Source: Pseudomonas frederiksbergensis
GTDB taxonomy: Bacteria; Pseudomonadota; Gammaproteobacteria; Pseudomonadales; Pseudomonadaceae
Assembly: GCF_001874645.1 (NCBI RefSeq)
Contig: NZ_CP017886.1
Location: 1,550,001-1,614,000, forward strand
Direction of reading: 5' to 3'
DNA length: 64,000 bases
Positions 3 through 5,010 of the stretch are shown here, in pieces; within the stretch, counting starts at the first letter, position 1; each line of letters begins with the position of its first letter. The translations under genes and the position numbers were made by a program. The notes beneath the pieces are model-generated. The model ran no database searches. It was given only the letters and a program-made list of their open reading frames with translations, and was not told the DNA's origin.

Positions 3-1388
3 AAAGTGCTGGTGATCTGTGCCCACGCCGAAACCGCCATGGACCTGGAAGACGCCCTGCGCGTACGTTCCGGCATCCCGGCCACGGTGTTCCATGAAGG
101 CATGAACATCCTTGAACGTGACCGTGCGGCGGCTTACTTCGCCGACGAAGAGTTCGGCGCCCAGGTGCTGATCTGTTCGGAAATCGGCAGTGAAGGTCGC
201 AACTTCCAGTTCTCCCACCACTTGGTGCTGTTCGATCTGCCATCGCACCCGGACCTGCTGGAACAGCGGATCGGGCGTCTCGACCGGATCGGTCAGAAGC
301 ACGTCATCGAACTGCATGTGCCGTACCTGGAAACCAGCCCGCAAGAGCGCCTGTTCCAGTGGTATCACGAAGCGCTGAACGCGTTCCTCAACACCTGCCC
401 GACCGGCAACGCCTTGCAGCATCAGTTCGGCCCACGCCTGCTGCCACTGCTGGAAAACGCCGATGACGGTGAGTGGCAAGCGCTGATTGACGAAGCCCGT
501 ACCACCCGTGAAAACCTGGAAGCCGAGTTGCACAGCGGCCGTGACCGCCTGCTGGAACTCAACTCCGGCGGCGCGGGCGAAGGTGACGCGCTGGTTGAGG
601 CAATCCTTGAGCAAGACGATCAGTTCGCCCTGCCGATTTACATGGAAACCCTGTTCGACGCGTTCGGCATCGACAGCGAAGACCACTCGGAAAACGCGCT
701 GATCCTCAAGCCGAGCGAAAAAATGCTCGACGCCAGCTTCCCGCTGGGCGACGACGAAGGCGTAACCATCACCTACGACCGCAACCAGGCGCTGTCTCGC
801 GAAGACATGCAATTCATCACCTGGGAGCACCCGATGGTTCAGGGCGGCATGGACCTGGTCCTGTCCGGCTCGATGGGTAACACCGCCGTGGCGCTGATCA
901 AAAACAAGGCACTCAAGCCCGGCACCGTGTTGCTGGAGCTGCTTTACGTCAGCGAAGTGGTTGCCCCGCGCTCGCTGCAATTGGGCCGTTACCTGCCGCC
1001 GGCCGCCCTGCGCTGCCTGCTCGATGCCAACGGCAACGACCTGTCGGGTCGCGTTTCATTCGAAACCCTCAACGACCAGCTCGAAAGCGTGCCACGCGCC
1101 AGCGCCAACAAGTTTGTCCAGGCTCAGCGTGATCAACTGACACCGCGCATCAATGCCGGTGAAGAGAAGATCACCCCGCGCCACGCCGAACGTGTCGCCG
1201 AAGCGCAACGCCGTCTGGCGGCCGATACCGAAGAAGAACTGGCGCGCCTGACCGCCCTGCAAGCGGTCAACCCGACCGTGCGCGACAGCGAACTGGTTGC
1301 CTTGCGTCAGCAGCGCGAGCAAGGCCTGGCCATGCTCGACAAAGCGGCACTGCGACTGGAAGCGATCCGGGTGCTGGTGGCGGGTTAA
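3..1388 (+). CDS. rapA: RNA polymerase-associated ATPase RapA (C-terminal part, 5' end outside window)
   Basis: This is the C-terminal portion of RapA (HepA), a Swi2/Snf2-type ATPase that binds RNA polymerase and promotes its recycling. The frame is already open at the left edge, so the gene starts outside the window and about 460 residues are visible. They begin inside the second RecA-like helicase domain: an [14 protein letters not shown] segment (motif V) is followed by [11 protein letters not shown] (motif VI, arginine finger). After this come the RapA-specific C-terminal domains, rich in charged helices. The gene ends in a TAA and is followed at once by a strong intrinsic terminator. The motif VI sequence and overall similarity make the call firm; only the full length is unknown. 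Confidence 0.93.
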
Positions 1389-1411: not shown

Positions 1412-1441
1412 AAAAGGCCCGCAGCGATGCGGGCCTTTTTT
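1412..1441 (+). terminator. Intrinsic terminator of rapA
   Basis: A GC-rich hairpin (AAAAGGCCCGC, four-base loop region, GCGGGCCTTTT) is followed by a run of T, 24 bases after the rapA stop codon. Confidence 0.9.
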
Positions 1442-1917
1442 GTTCTTGATCCGATCGTTCCCATGCGCAGCAAAGAGCCGAAGTGCCGCTGGTTGAACTA
1501 CGTTCGGTACTGAACGAGATCAACCAGCGCAAGCACGCACACGCCATCAATCCTTTGAGTCTGGCTCGCGGTAAAGATGGATCAATGTCGCGGGATCTTT
1601 TTCCAGATAGCCCTGCCCACCATGCAGGCGCGGCAATAGGCCGCGGCCAACAAGCGCCGGCACATCGGTAACCCCATCAAGCCGATTCCAGCGAACGCGA
1701 GCGAAGGTAACGTTGCCACCCATTTGCCTCTGTTCGATTAAAGATCGCCGAATATTGGCCGATTCATCATGAATCAGGAAAGGATTCCCCCTAGCGACGC
1801 TCAGGTAAAGCCCTATCGCTGGGGACACTATCGCGCTGTAAAGTCGCGAGTTCTATATTCGTGATGGCTTGATGATATCTCGCCGCCGAACCAACCAGTC
1901 CAGGCACATGGCGCACA
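1442..1917. other. Gene-poor stretch upstream of the tubulin-like gene
   Basis: About 475 bases without a gene I can support. On the minus strand a frame of 93 codons (1547-1828, GTG start) stays open and reads fairly like coding sequence at its end. It has no recognisable domain or clear ribosome binding site, so it may be a gene remnant. The first bases (GATCGTTCCCA near 1450) resemble the start of a dispersed Pseudomonas intergenic repeat also seen near 31886. The promoter of the downstream gene should lie here, but no convincing -35/-10 pair stands out. Confidence 0.4.
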
Positions 1918-4095
1918 ATGACTTCTAAAAATAATCCTGCCCCAGCGGTATCCGAACTGACGCTCACCGCCGCCACGGATAAACCCTCAGCCCCGAAGCC
2001 ATTGACCAGCTCACGCCCGCTTGCGACTCAGCAGTACCTGTACTTCACCGAGACCAACACCGATCGCATCCTCGACAACCTCGATGGCCTGCGTGATCTG
2101 GTGTTTCCCAAGCCGCCACACCTGGAGGACGCCCACGAACTGCATCAGCAGGAGTTCCCCTCGGTGTGCCTGATCGGCCTGGGTCGCTGCGGTTCGAACA
2201 TTGCGCTGGACGTCGCGGAACTGGTGTACAACGCCCGCAAGTTCTACCTCAACGAGTTCAACAACGAAGACAAGCCCTATGCTGAAAAGGGCTACAGCCC
2301 TGCGCAATGGATTCGTAACAACCTGAAACTGGGTGTCGGCAAGGCCACCAAACCGGTGTTCCTGGTCGAGCCACTGGTGATGCTCGGCGACCTGGACAAA
2401 GACATCGCCGGACGTATCCGCTTCTCGCGCAAGGGCGAAAAAAGCGGCTTCCTGCGCGACTACAGCAAAATGAAGATCATGGACCTCTCGGAAGTCCATG
2501 CCGGCGGCGCCGGTAACGCGCCGATCCTCGGCCAGTACCTGGCGAAGATCATCCTGAACAAGGACACCCAGCGCTTCTCCAGCCCCGACTGGAAAATGAT
2601 CCACTCGTACCTGATCGACAGCTGCGGCATCAAGGCTAACCAGTCGCGCCTGTATTTCTCGATCTTCAGCGCCGGTGGCGGTACCGGTTCGGGTATGGCC
2701 TCGGAGTTCGGCCTGGCCCAGCAACACTCGTACATGAACAAGACGTTCGACACCAAACCGGTGGACGAGCACGACAGCAAGAGCGGCCACTCCTTCGTTT
2801 TCGAGCCGATCTTCACCAGCGGCATTTGCGTACTGCCGAACATTTCCGATCACCGCAGCGAAATGTCTGAAGCACTGCACATCAACGCCGGTCGTCTACT
2901 GTGCAAGTACCTGTCGGAAGAATGGGATTTCTCATACAACTTCGCCAACGAAGACAGCAGTGAAGCCAGCGTCATGGGCCGTATCCGTCCATGGAATGCA
3001 ATGATGCTGATCTCCAACGACATCATGCGTTACGCCGAAGAGAACGATGACGGCAATATCCAGAACATTGATGTCAATGCCATGGAAAAGCACGCCAACC
3101 AGTACATCTCGCAGCAGATCTTCAACATCCTGACGGCCCAGGCGGTCACCACCGACTACGACCAGAACTACTTCCGTCGGGCTGGGATCGACATCGGCGA
3201 AACCATTCGCCTGGACGCCAATGATCTGTTCATGAGCCTGGCCGGGCCAGTAGCAATTGCCTACGCCGAGTCGGTGGTGCCAGAACAACCGGCACCGAGC
3301 AGTGACAAGTTCAAGGTGTTCGACAAAGAGCCGCTGCGCCTGAACATCGACGACCTGTTCTTCCGCTCCATCGACCTGCCGCACTTCAACAAAGTGACCC
3401 AGGCCATCGAAGGCATCAGCCTGTTGCCGATTGAGTCCAAGCGGTACCGCGCGTCGCTGGAGCAATACAAGAACTCGGGTTACGACGCTGCGGCCCTGCA
3501 TGACCTGCATTTCTTCAAGAACTGCTCGTCGGTGGTATCGATCGTGTCGCTGCCCAAGGATTACAAGCTGTCCTACATGGACCTGAACCGGTTGAAGACC
3601 CACCTCAACAGCCTGTTCCCCAACACCACGCTCAAGCGTTATGCACTGGTGATCGGCGCCTCGGCCAACCTTTCGCTGACCACCCTGATCGCCAAGAGCC
3701 CGTGTCTGTCAGACGATTTCCTGACCTTGATCGTGGCGTTCATCAAACGCTGCTTTGCCCGCACTCCGTACCGTTTCGACGAAACACTGGACAACTCGAT
3801 CCTCGACTTCATCATTCATGAAGACTTCGACGAGGACAGGATCGACGAGTTGCTCAACGAGTTCGAAAACCCGGCGAAGATCCTCGACACCAACTGGTAC
3901 GCGATCAAGCCGATGTACGAGAAGAAGTACCGCGAGCTGATCAACGACAAAGACAAATTTGTCTCGATCAACGACATCCGCCTGTCGCGTGATTGCGTGA
4001 AAAAGGCCATCAAGTACCTGCGCGAGATCTACCGTCACCGTATCGGCAAGACCAAGGTCATTTCGCTGAATAACCACACCGGCAAGACGGCGTAA
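1918..4095 (+). CDS. Tubulin/FtsZ-superfamily GTPase-like protein of unknown role
   Basis: A 725-residue protein with the signatures of the tubulin/FtsZ fold. GLGRCGSN at residues 87-94 resembles the tubulin T1 nucleotide loop (GQCGNQ). GGGTGSG at 253-259 is the classic T4 tubulin signature. LDANDL at 432-437, followed by MSLAGPVAIAY, resembles the FtsZ T7 loop and helix H8, where two catalytic acidic residues are spaced D-x-x-D (here D433 and D436). The spacing between T1 and T4 is longer than in FtsZ or tubulin, so there are insertions, and about 290 residues follow the T7-like loop. It is not the cell-division FtsZ (about 390 residues). It most resembles the Pfam 'Tubulin_2' type of bacterial protein. 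It stands alone, with no operon partner, after the rapA terminator and before a REP. The ATG has only a weak ribosome binding site. A cytoskeletal or membrane-remodelling role is inference. Confidence 0.75.
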   Translation: MTSKNNPAPAVSELTLTAATDKPSAPKPLTSSRPLATQQYLYFTETNTDRILDNLDGLRDLVFPKPPHLEDAHELHQQEFPSVCLIGLGRCGSNIALDVAELVYNARKFYLNEFNNEDKPYAEKGYSPAQWIRNNLKLGVGKATKPVFLVEPLVMLGDLDKDIAGRIRFSRKGEKSGFLRDYSKMKIMDLSEVHAGGAGNAPILGQYLAKIILNKDTQRFSSPDWKMIHSYLIDSCGIKANQSRLYFSIFSAGGGTGSGMASEFGLAQQHSYMNKTFDTKPVDEHDSKSGHSFVFEPIFTSGICVLPNISDHRSEMSEALHINAGRLLCKYLSEEWDFSYNFANEDSSEASVMGRIRPWNAMMLISNDIMRYAEENDDGNIQNIDVNAMEKHANQYISQQIFNILTAQAVTTDYDQNYFRRAGIDIGETIRLDANDLFMSLAGPVAIAYAESVVPEQPAPSSDKFKVFDKEPLRLNIDDLFFRSIDLPHFNKVTQAIEGISLLPIESKRYRASLEQYKNSGYDAAALHDLHFFKNCSSVVSIVSLPKDYKLSYMDLNRLKTHLNSLFPNTTLKRYALVIGASANLSLTTLIAKSPCLSDDFLTLIVAFIKRCFARTPYRFDETLDNSILDFIIHEDFDEDRIDELLNEFENPAKILDTNWYAIKPMYEKKYRELINDKDKFVSINDIRLSRDCVKKAIKYLREIYRHRIGKTKVISLNNHTGKTA

Positions 4096-4357: not shown

Positions 4358-4663
4358 TCAGACCTGCGCCCTTTCCTGGATCAGAATCCACGGCGAAACA
4401 ACCACTGCCCACAACTCTGGATCGCGTTCGAAAAGATCCAGCGCCCGCGTTTCAGACAGCTTGGCGACTTTGTCGGCGGCCAGCCAGGCAGCCACTTTCT
4501 CGCCTTCGTCCTGGGCAACCGCCTCGGCAGCAGCGATCAAATCCAGACCTGGGTCGACCCACAATAGGGCACCCTTGGCGAAGAACGGTTCGAGTTCCTT
4601 CCAGGTAATAGATGCGGTTTCACCAAGCAGCTTGGCATAGAGGGTGCTAGGTTCTTGAGTCAT
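4358..4663 (-). CDS. DUF2288 family protein
   Basis: A 101-residue protein matching the small DUF2288 family of gamma-proteobacteria: an N-terminal LYAKLLGETA segment, WKELEPFFAKG, and a C-terminal helix ending before ALDLFERDPELWAV. No function is known for the family. An upstream extension of ten codons is open, but the ATG at 4663 fits the family length and has a GACAGGG ribosome binding site nearby. It is cytoplasmic by composition, has no signal peptide, and is transcribed away from braC. Confidence 0.8.
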   Translation of the reverse strand: MTQEPSTLYAKLLGETASITWKELEPFFAKGALLWVDPGLDLIAAAEAVAQDEGEKVAAWLAADKVAKLSETRALDLFERDPELWAVVVSPWILIQERAQV

Positions 4664-5010
4664 GGGCCCTGTCCGGAATTGAAATCGGCGCAATCATAAC
4701 GTCGGAGCTCTGGCAGAAAAACCCGGATGCAATAGAGTCATTGATCGAGAACTGCAGGAAAGCAAGGATAGCCGCTGAATCGGGTCACTACGCAGCCAAA
4801 ATCCCGCCGCAATTCTGTCTTTTTCTTTCAAAAATGCGACACCCTCAGGTTTTGTCCCTGAGCGCCAGCTTTCCAAGCGAACAATCGGCGCTCTACACTG
4901 TACCGGTACAGTTGCCGGGGGCATTTCCGGGGGATATCCAAGATATCGATCCGGTTCTGTGGCTCAGGCTGCCAGGACTATAAAAACTACAACAGTAAGA
5001 GTGGAGCACT
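4664..5010. promoter_or_regulatory. braC upstream region with a perfect 14-bp palindrome
   Basis: This 347-base gap carries the promoters of the DUF2288 gene and braC. A perfect palindrome, CTGTACCGGTACAG, lies at 4898-4911, about 100 bases before the braC start. It is a candidate operator. The half-site spacing (CTGT-N6-ACAG) is two bases shorter than a LexA box, so I do not call it LexA. I cannot assign a -35/-10 pair with confidence. Confidence 0.35.

What the first reader, a model, noticed from the sequence alone, without database searches (positions are those of the whole stretch)
1918..4095. Solitary tubulin/FtsZ-superfamily protein with T1, T4 and T7-like motifs
Seen: GLGRCGSN (87-94), the tubulin signature GGGTGSG (253-259) and a D-x-x-D pair in LDANDL (433, 436) followed by a helix like FtsZ H8. 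Together these imply a nucleotide-binding and possibly GTP-hydrolysing, polymer-forming protein distinct from FtsZ. Established: bacterial tubulin-like families beyond FtsZ exist, but most have no known role. Inference: it may be a cytoskeletal element for envelope, phage-defence or chromosome functions. No partner gene flanks it, which is itself unusual.
Basis: partly seen in the sequence, partly recalled or inferred. Interest (0 to 1): 0.75.

Follow-up and report, generated by a model that had tools for sequence, protein, structure and literature searches.

The report
FtsZ-like 2 bacterial tubulin homologue
This gene encodes a second relative of tubulin in a bacterium that already has the division protein FtsZ; its family (FtsZl2) was named in 2010 but still seems to have no known job, although the sequence features needed to bind and burn GTP as a filament are kept.

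Summary
The 725-aa ORF at 1918-4095 (+) carries GLGRCGSN (87-94), GGGTGSG (253-259) and LDANDL (432-437). Each of the six is kept in 268 or 269 of the 269 sequences held (this protein and 268 homologues). Pfam hits to Tubulin and Tubulin_2 are below cut-off. Two template-free models are poor over the N-terminal half, yet both retrieve almost only tubulins, FtsZ, TubZ and CetZ from the PDB, and in one of them 30 of 50 structural alignments begin exactly at D433 (residue 209 of E. coli FtsZ), the place expected of the T7 loop. So this is a tubulin-superfamily protein with GTP-binding motifs and a tubulin-type C-terminal domain, beside an ordinary FtsZ in the same genome. It matches family FtsZl2, published in 2010 with a Pseudomonas fluorescens type protein and the same remark that it has no partner genes. 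In 34 places examined I found no conserved partner; no plasmid, phage or viral-contig homologue; no defence model. Best reading: an auxiliary, chromosomal, GTP-driven filament former of unknown cellular role. Family known; function untested.

The parts
1918..4095 (+). FtsZl2-type tubulin-superfamily gene, 725 aa
   Evidence: ORF and translation; purifying selection; 662 homologous proteins at E <= 0.001, 120 listed
1918..2037 (+). codons 1-40: variable N-terminal tail
   Evidence: no invariant column before residue 51 apart from near-invariant M1, Y42, T44, E45; pLDDT about 26-32
2176..2199 (+). T1-like loop GLGRCGSN (87-94)
   Evidence: 268 of 269
2497..2532 (+).
   Evidence: 269 of 269; hhalign sets it opposite the FtsZ T3 loop together with T4, but with a weak overall score
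2674..2694 (+). T4 tubulin signature GGGTGSG (253-259)
   Evidence: 268 of 269
3007..3030 (+). T6-like LISNDIMR (364-371), candidate guanine-contact Asn367
   Evidence: 268 of 269; role inferred from FtsZ (recalled)
3073..3144 (+). H7-like central helix (386-409) with ANQY, Asn394
   Evidence: predicted helix 386-409, low confidence; AN[QE]Y[IV]SQQ in 269 of 269
3208..3228 (+). T7 loop RLDANDL (431-437), D433 and D436
   Evidence: 269 of 269; 30 of 50 alignments begin at model residue 433, E. coli FtsZ 209
3214..3723 (+). tubulin/FtsZ-type C-terminal domain (about 433-602)
   Evidence: VIA-align rows to FtsZ, TubZ, CetZ in two models
3724..4068 (+). C-terminal helical extension (about 603-717)
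   Evidence: predicted helices; aligned only loosely to tubulins in one model (rmsd 4.7-6.6 A where the range passes residue 700)
1412..1439 (+). terminator-like hairpin after rapA (suggestive only)
   Evidence: 3 found, 4.0 expected in shuffles
6..1388 (+). rapA, 3' part (flank, not part of the system)
   Evidence: NCBIfam NF003426 and Pfam RapA_C
4358..4693 (-). DUF2288 gene (flank, convergent)
   Evidence: PF10052

Best explanation
It is a member of the FtsZ-like 2 (FtsZl2) family: a cytoplasmic tubulin-superfamily protein encoded singly on the chromosome alongside ordinary FtsZ. Inferred mechanism: GTP sits in a pocket made by the T1, T3, T4 and T6-like loops and the Asn of the H7-like helix. 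Subunits stack head to tail. The T7 loop (RxDxxD) of one subunit completes the active site of the next and triggers hydrolysis, so filaments turn over. The variable N-terminal tail and the conserved C-terminal helical extension (about 603-717) are the likely places for lateral contacts or for a partner encoded elsewhere. Shown here: the motifs, their conservation, a tubulin-type C-terminal domain, no FtsZ-family model match, no strong membrane-span candidate, no constant neighbour. Inferred: GTP binding, polymerisation, hydrolysis. Unknown: the cellular role; I favour an auxiliary cytoskeletal scaffold or positioning filament, not division and not phage defence.
Against: Both models have low mean confidence (pLDDT 44.8 and 48.6), T7 itself lies in a stretch under 50, and the N-terminal nucleotide domain is essentially unmodelled, so its fold rests on motifs. 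In the second model the row for E. coli FtsZ begins at 252 = 95, which does not put GGGTGSG on the FtsZ T4 loop (residue 106 in this genome's FtsZ); that part is not in register. Foldseek gave 0 and 2 hits at E <= 0.001. P0001 alone is below both Pfam cut-offs. The profile-profile comparison with 7 FtsZ sequences was weak (probability 1.9%, E 0.026; query Neff 1.9). No PDB sequence match: none for P0001 up to E 1, and only ribosomal L23 at E 0.3 or worse for the profile. The FtsZ T7 Asn (recalled) is Arg431 here. I found no report of polymerisation or GTPase activity for this family.
Confidence: 0.7

Rival explanations
1. It binds GTP but does not form its own dynamic polymer: it acts as a monomeric or capping regulator, for example of FtsZ, or as a nucleotide-switched scaffold.
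For: Long inserts between T1 and T4 (166 residues from the start of T1 to the start of T4, against 88 in this genome's FtsZ) and the C-terminal extension could block head-to-tail stacking. Arg replaces the T7 Asn. No partner or anchor gene is linked.
Against: The motifs of both faces of a tubulin protofilament contact, D433 and D436 included, are kept in 268-269 of 269 sequences, which a non-polymerising protein would not need. The 2010 authors also predicted filaments for FtsZl2.
Confidence: 0.2
2. It works with cyclic-di-GMP signalling: the filament positions or is regulated by GGDEF-EAL proteins.
For: GGDEF-EAL genes of different architecture lie within about 8 kb in three lineages: an MHYT-GGDEF-EAL gene in 7 of 11 same-genus loci of the rapA type, an ammonium-transporter-PAS-GGDEF-EAL gene directly adjacent and on the same strand in 6 of 9 Marinomonas loci, and a PAS-GAF-GGDEF-EAL gene in G092 (Pfam run on one example of each). 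One of the six other same-genus loci (L033) also has a GGDEF/EAL-motif ORF.
Against: Found after the fact and by a motif expression. These genomes carry many EAL genes (4-36 in the 10 checked), so by my estimate 0.06-0.13 are expected per 16 kb by chance. None near the gene in 3 of 9 Marinomonas loci, 5 of the 6 other same-genus loci, f14, G906 or G787 or the three g217 loci; the one in the window is reduced to a piece matching 28 residues at its end while the FtsZl2 gene stays intact.
Confidence: 0.08
3. It is a phage-defence or mobile-element tubulin (TubZ or PhuZ type).
For: Patchy distribution and apparent transfer between orders; TubZ is among the best structural matches.
Against: No hit at E <= 1e-5 in 72,556 plasmid and 50,697 phage records, none confirmed among 90 candidate stretches of the viral contigs; no PADLOC model; 12 of 17 same-genus loci share the same chromosomal neighbourhood beside the liv operon.
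Confidence: 0.03
4. The motifs are coincidental and it is not a tubulin-fold protein.
For: Sub-threshold Pfam scores; poor model of the N-terminal half.
Against: Motifs in tubulin order, conserved in 268-269 of 269 sequences, and two template-free models that retrieve almost only tubulins.
Confidence: 0.02

Closest known systems
FtsZl2 (FtsZ-like 2) family, Makarova and Koonin 2010, type PFL_1302 of P. fluorescens Pf-5
   Same: GGGTGSG signature, T1/T4/T6/T7 and H7 motifs, inserts between T1 and T4, about 290-residue mixed alpha/beta C-terminal region, no associated genes, presence in Pseudomonas and Marinomonas
   Different: They found no similarity for the C-terminal region; here about 433-602 matches the tubulin/FtsZ C-terminal domain. 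Identity to PFL_1302 itself was not measured.
FtsZ
   Same: T4 signature, T7 acidic pair, C-terminal domain fold
   Different: 725 against 397 aa, no FtsZ model match, an authentic FtsZ is present separately
FtsZl1 / Pfam Tubulin_2
   Same: Same superfamily; weak Tubulin_2 similarity
   Different: Below the Tubulin_2 cut-off (16.5 against 27 bits); T6, H7 and T7 are present here, while the paper could not identify the T6-H7 elements in FtsZl1; no vWA gene beside the window copy
TubZ / PhuZ
   Same: TubZ gives the top Foldseek hit in both models
   Different: Chromosomal (5.7-Mb contig), no plasmid or phage homologue found
CetZ and eukaryotic tubulins
   Different: About 10% identity; alignments that include the last 110 residues are loose

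Membership tests
FtsZl2 | GGGTG(S/T)G loop with T1, T6, T7 and H7 motifs | tested here: met
FtsZl2 | weak profile similarity to PF00091 | tested here: met
   hmmscan E 0.003, below cut-off; the paper reports HHpred E 0.0033 for the type protein, another program
FtsZl2 | family-specific inserts between T1 and T4 | tested here: met
   166 residues from T1 to T4 against 88 in FtsZ; their inserts were not compared letter by letter
FtsZl2 | about 300-residue mixed alpha/beta C-terminal region | tested here: met
   289 residues after D436; alternating helices and strands
FtsZl2 | no coiled-coil domain | not tested
   no coiled-coil predictor was run
FtsZl2 | no conserved neighbouring genes | tested here: met
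   (35 loci, two of one contig)
FtsZl2 | limited to Proteobacteria | tested here: inconclusive
   organism names shown are gammaproteobacterial where informative (taxonomy recalled); no genome outside Pseudomonadota was searched
FtsZl2 | sequence identity to PFL_1302 | not tested
   I did not have that record; a protein named P. fluorescens is 94% identical
FtsZ | match to FtsZ equivalog model TIGR00065 | tested here: not met
   no NCBIfam match for P0001 up to E 1; the genome's FtsZ scores 419 bits
FtsZl1 / Tubulin_2 | PF13809 above cut-off | tested here: not met
   16.5 bits against 27
FtsZl1 / Tubulin_2 | vWA, kinase or GTPase gene in the same operon | tested here: not met
   window copy only: flanks are rapA, DUF2288 and liv genes; neighbours elsewhere were clustered, not all scanned
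TubZ / PhuZ | carried on a plasmid or phage | tested here: not met
   window lies in a 5.7-Mb contig; no homologue
Tubulin superfamily | tubulin-type C-terminal domain behind T7 | tested here: met
Tubulin superfamily | Rossmann-type GTPase domain fold | tested here: inconclusive
   motifs present; model confidence too low and T4 not in register
Tubulin superfamily | GTP binding, hydrolysis and polymerisation | not testable with these tools
   needs biochemistry

The most novel reading that the evidence does not exclude
FtsZl2 is a self-sufficient, actively treadmilling or dynamically unstable chromosomal tubulin of Gammaproteobacteria, with a tubulin-like C-terminal helical layer (about 603-717) that gives it its own filament or tubule architecture. 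If so, many pseudomonads and their relatives have a second tubulin cytoskeleton with a cell-biological job (envelope, pole or signalling-protein positioning) that has gone unseen because the gene stands alone.
Probability: 0.25. Interest if true: 0.72.

Novelty: already known. Interest (0 to 1): 0.4.

Why it matters
A second tubulin-superfamily protein, evolving under strong constraint in common laboratory genera, seems to have been left without a function since it was named in 2010. If it polymerises, it is a cytoskeletal element in easily handled bacteria. The register found here (D433 on residue 209 of E. coli FtsZ) says which residues to change to test that.

Tried and rejected
Phage-defence reading: no PADLOC model, no phage, plasmid or viral-contig homologue. 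Universal partner gene: clustering of neighbours in 32 loci (L039 and L084 are the same contig) found, apart from the gene and ORFs antisense to it, no cluster joining different genera except ABC ATPases and GGDEF-EAL proteins; three further loci were only read as ORF lists. A beta-hydroxyacid-dehydrogenase-like and a hydroxypyruvate-isomerase-like gene (both below the NCBIfam cut-offs) recur near it in 10 and 5 of the 17 same-genus loci, in two kinds of place, but not in other genera, and the former is only a remnant in the window; I rejected them as partners.

The hit in G294 is GlnE, a false positive, so 2 of 369 genomes there are real, one being the window's own. The in-frame stops reported for G547 do not break the gene: an uninterrupted 675-aa ORF covers it. 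The copy in G787 is broken.

Structure of the N-terminal half: two AlphaFold jobs with 48 and 111 sequences both failed there, probably because the family is so uniform (lowest pairwise identity among the 269 about 55%). hhalign against 7 FtsZ sequences was inconclusive. The viral structure library gave no hit at E <= 0.001; its top hit was a RusA-like resolvase, and ranks 3 and 4 were two phage FtsZ-like or cell-division proteins at E 0.03 and 0.05. My single genome-contig scan used one divergent sequence instead of an alignment and returned only two loci. Tubulin_2 was not found in 19 or 120 genomes of the group.

Print searches: 'FtsZl2' as a family name turned up only in PMC2875224. The other paper with that string, PMC7327170, has it as part of a mutant name, FtsZL272E (passages). 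The library lacks most subscription journals and preprints. PMC4672568, PMC12583498, PMC13394414 and the other papers listed in those calls were seen as listings only.

Full report
What is in the window. The ORF at 1918-4095 (+) encodes 725 aa. Reading the family alignments, I add a T3-like loop HAGGAGNAPILG (194-205), a T6-like LISNDIMR (364-371) and an H7-like ANQYISQQ (from 393). Loop names and their roles in FtsZ are recalled. In 269 sequences, this protein and 268 homologues from three searches, the six motifs are kept in 268, 269, 268, 268, 269 and 269 (T1, T3, T4, T6, H7, T7). Each search listed only its best 120 of 662, 647 and 648 hits, themselves drawn from capped candidate lists, so the 269 are the closer part of the family.

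Is it a tubulin? Single-sequence evidence is modest: Pfam Tubulin E 0.003 and Tubulin_2 E 0.0053, both below cut-off; no NCBIfam, PADLOC or PDB sequence match. Of 48 members scanned at E up to 0.1, 47 match Tubulin (best 3.1e-5), 42 match Tubulin_2 (best 0.0012) and 17 match DUF6562 (best 0.0026). Template-free models from 48 and 111 sequences have mean pLDDT 44.8 and 48.6, and the N-terminal half is not modelled. Even so, by entry title 48 of the 50 listed Foldseek PDB hits for the second model (E 1.7e-3 to 5.8e-2) and 47 of 50 for the first (E 7.4e-4 to 9.9e-3) are TubZ, FtsZ, CetZ, BtubA, tubulins or gamma-tubulin complexes; the rest are ThiL and Atu1372. VIA-align, which only re-aligns Foldseek's matches, shows tubulin-superfamily entries in all 50 rows printed for both.

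What family? Makarova and Koonin 2010 (PMC2875224; parts 1 and 2 of 5 of the text read, further passages) described FtsZl2 from a P. fluorescens protein. It has the core motifs, inserts between T1 and T4, a roughly 300-residue alpha/beta C-terminal region of no known similarity, and no associated genes; the authors predicted filaments. Marinomonas is in their figure's species list, and the Marinomonas-genus proteins here are 68-70% identical to P0001 (one of them is letter for letter a Marinomonas posidonica protein). Two UniRef records already carry the name 'Tubulin-like protein'. I did not have PFL_1302 itself. The 2023 survey of the superfamily (PMC9871819; passages only) speaks of FtsZ-like sequences with Tubulin_2, a model this protein does not reach.

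Distribution. Own genus: 26 of 35 other genomes; other genera of the same sample: 1 of 21. Class sample: 3 of 369 including own and one false positive that is GlnE. Phylum sample: 9 of 398 including own and the broken copy of G787. Order sample: 16 of 293 including own, 10 of them of the Marinomonas genus. A second class sample with another family member as query: 4 of 384 including own. The samples overlap. A tree of 35 chosen rows places Celerinatantimonas and Paraglaciecola among Marinomonas rows in a strongly supported group, which suggests transfer between orders. No plasmid, phage or viral-contig copy was found.

Context. Of 17 same-genus loci, 12 have the liv operon beside the gene and 11 have rapA on the other side, with a variable set between (MFS transporter, MHYT-GGDEF-EAL, and a beta-hydroxyacid dehydrogenase closest to 2-hydroxy-3-oxopropionate reductase but below cut-off), and DUF2288 on the liv side. 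In the other five, and in other genera, it sits elsewhere, for example near ppx and rho in nine Marinomonas loci (Pfam on one of them). Clustering 32 loci found no neighbour shared between genera other than ABC ATPases and GGDEF-EAL proteins; three more loci were read as ORF lists. Two of the 35 loci are one contig. The GGDEF-EAL coincidence (three lineages, three architectures) is a weak lead only, given 4-36 EAL genes in each of 10 genomes.

Function. The retained GTP-contact motifs and T7 acids, a genome that already has FtsZ, dN/dS of 0.05-0.21 and no strong membrane-span candidate point to an auxiliary GTP-driven filament. Nothing here shows polymerisation or says what it does for the cell. 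Six literature searches found no experimental work on FtsZl2.

Verdict. A sound observation of an already described but functionally blank family; the added value is the T3-like loop, the T7 register, the C-terminal domain and the wider survey. T6 and H7 were already noted by the 2010 authors.

Noticed in passing
window 1483-1719: Between rapA and this gene lie gene remnants: two minus-strand pieces of a beta-hydroxyacid dehydrogenase (matching residues 2-38 and 251-293 of a relative) and a piece matching residues 704-731 of a 736-aa MHYT-GGDEF-EAL protein. Of 21 other same-genus 5-kb loci, 12 show the dehydrogenase over 175-301 residues and 18 show the 3' part of the EAL gene, so this lineage seems to have lost the block.
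   Followed up: partly
L064 7910-10608 (G787): A broken copy of the FtsZl2 gene, in separate pieces with a GDSL-like ORF between them (label by eye), lying between genes that read by eye as sugar-metabolism and TCA-cycle genes.
   Followed up: partly
L063, L078, L080, L081, L082, L085: Ammonium-transporter-PAS-GGDEF-EAL fusion genes (Pfam run on L063 only; the others are at least 70% identical) directly beside the FtsZl2 gene on the same strand in Marinomonas genomes, upstream in two and downstream in four.
   Followed up: partly
L090 5123-6807: Two ORFs resembling an AbiEi/AbiEii-type toxin-antitoxin pair (by eye, no search run) upstream of the FtsZl2 gene in one of three same-genus genomes; not seen in the ORF lists of the other two.
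   Followed up: no
window 3208-3210 (residue 431): The Asn of the FtsZ T7 motif (NxDxxD, recalled) is Arg in every FtsZl2 sequence checked (269 of 269 carry RLDANDL); what this does to catalysis is unknown.
   Followed up: no
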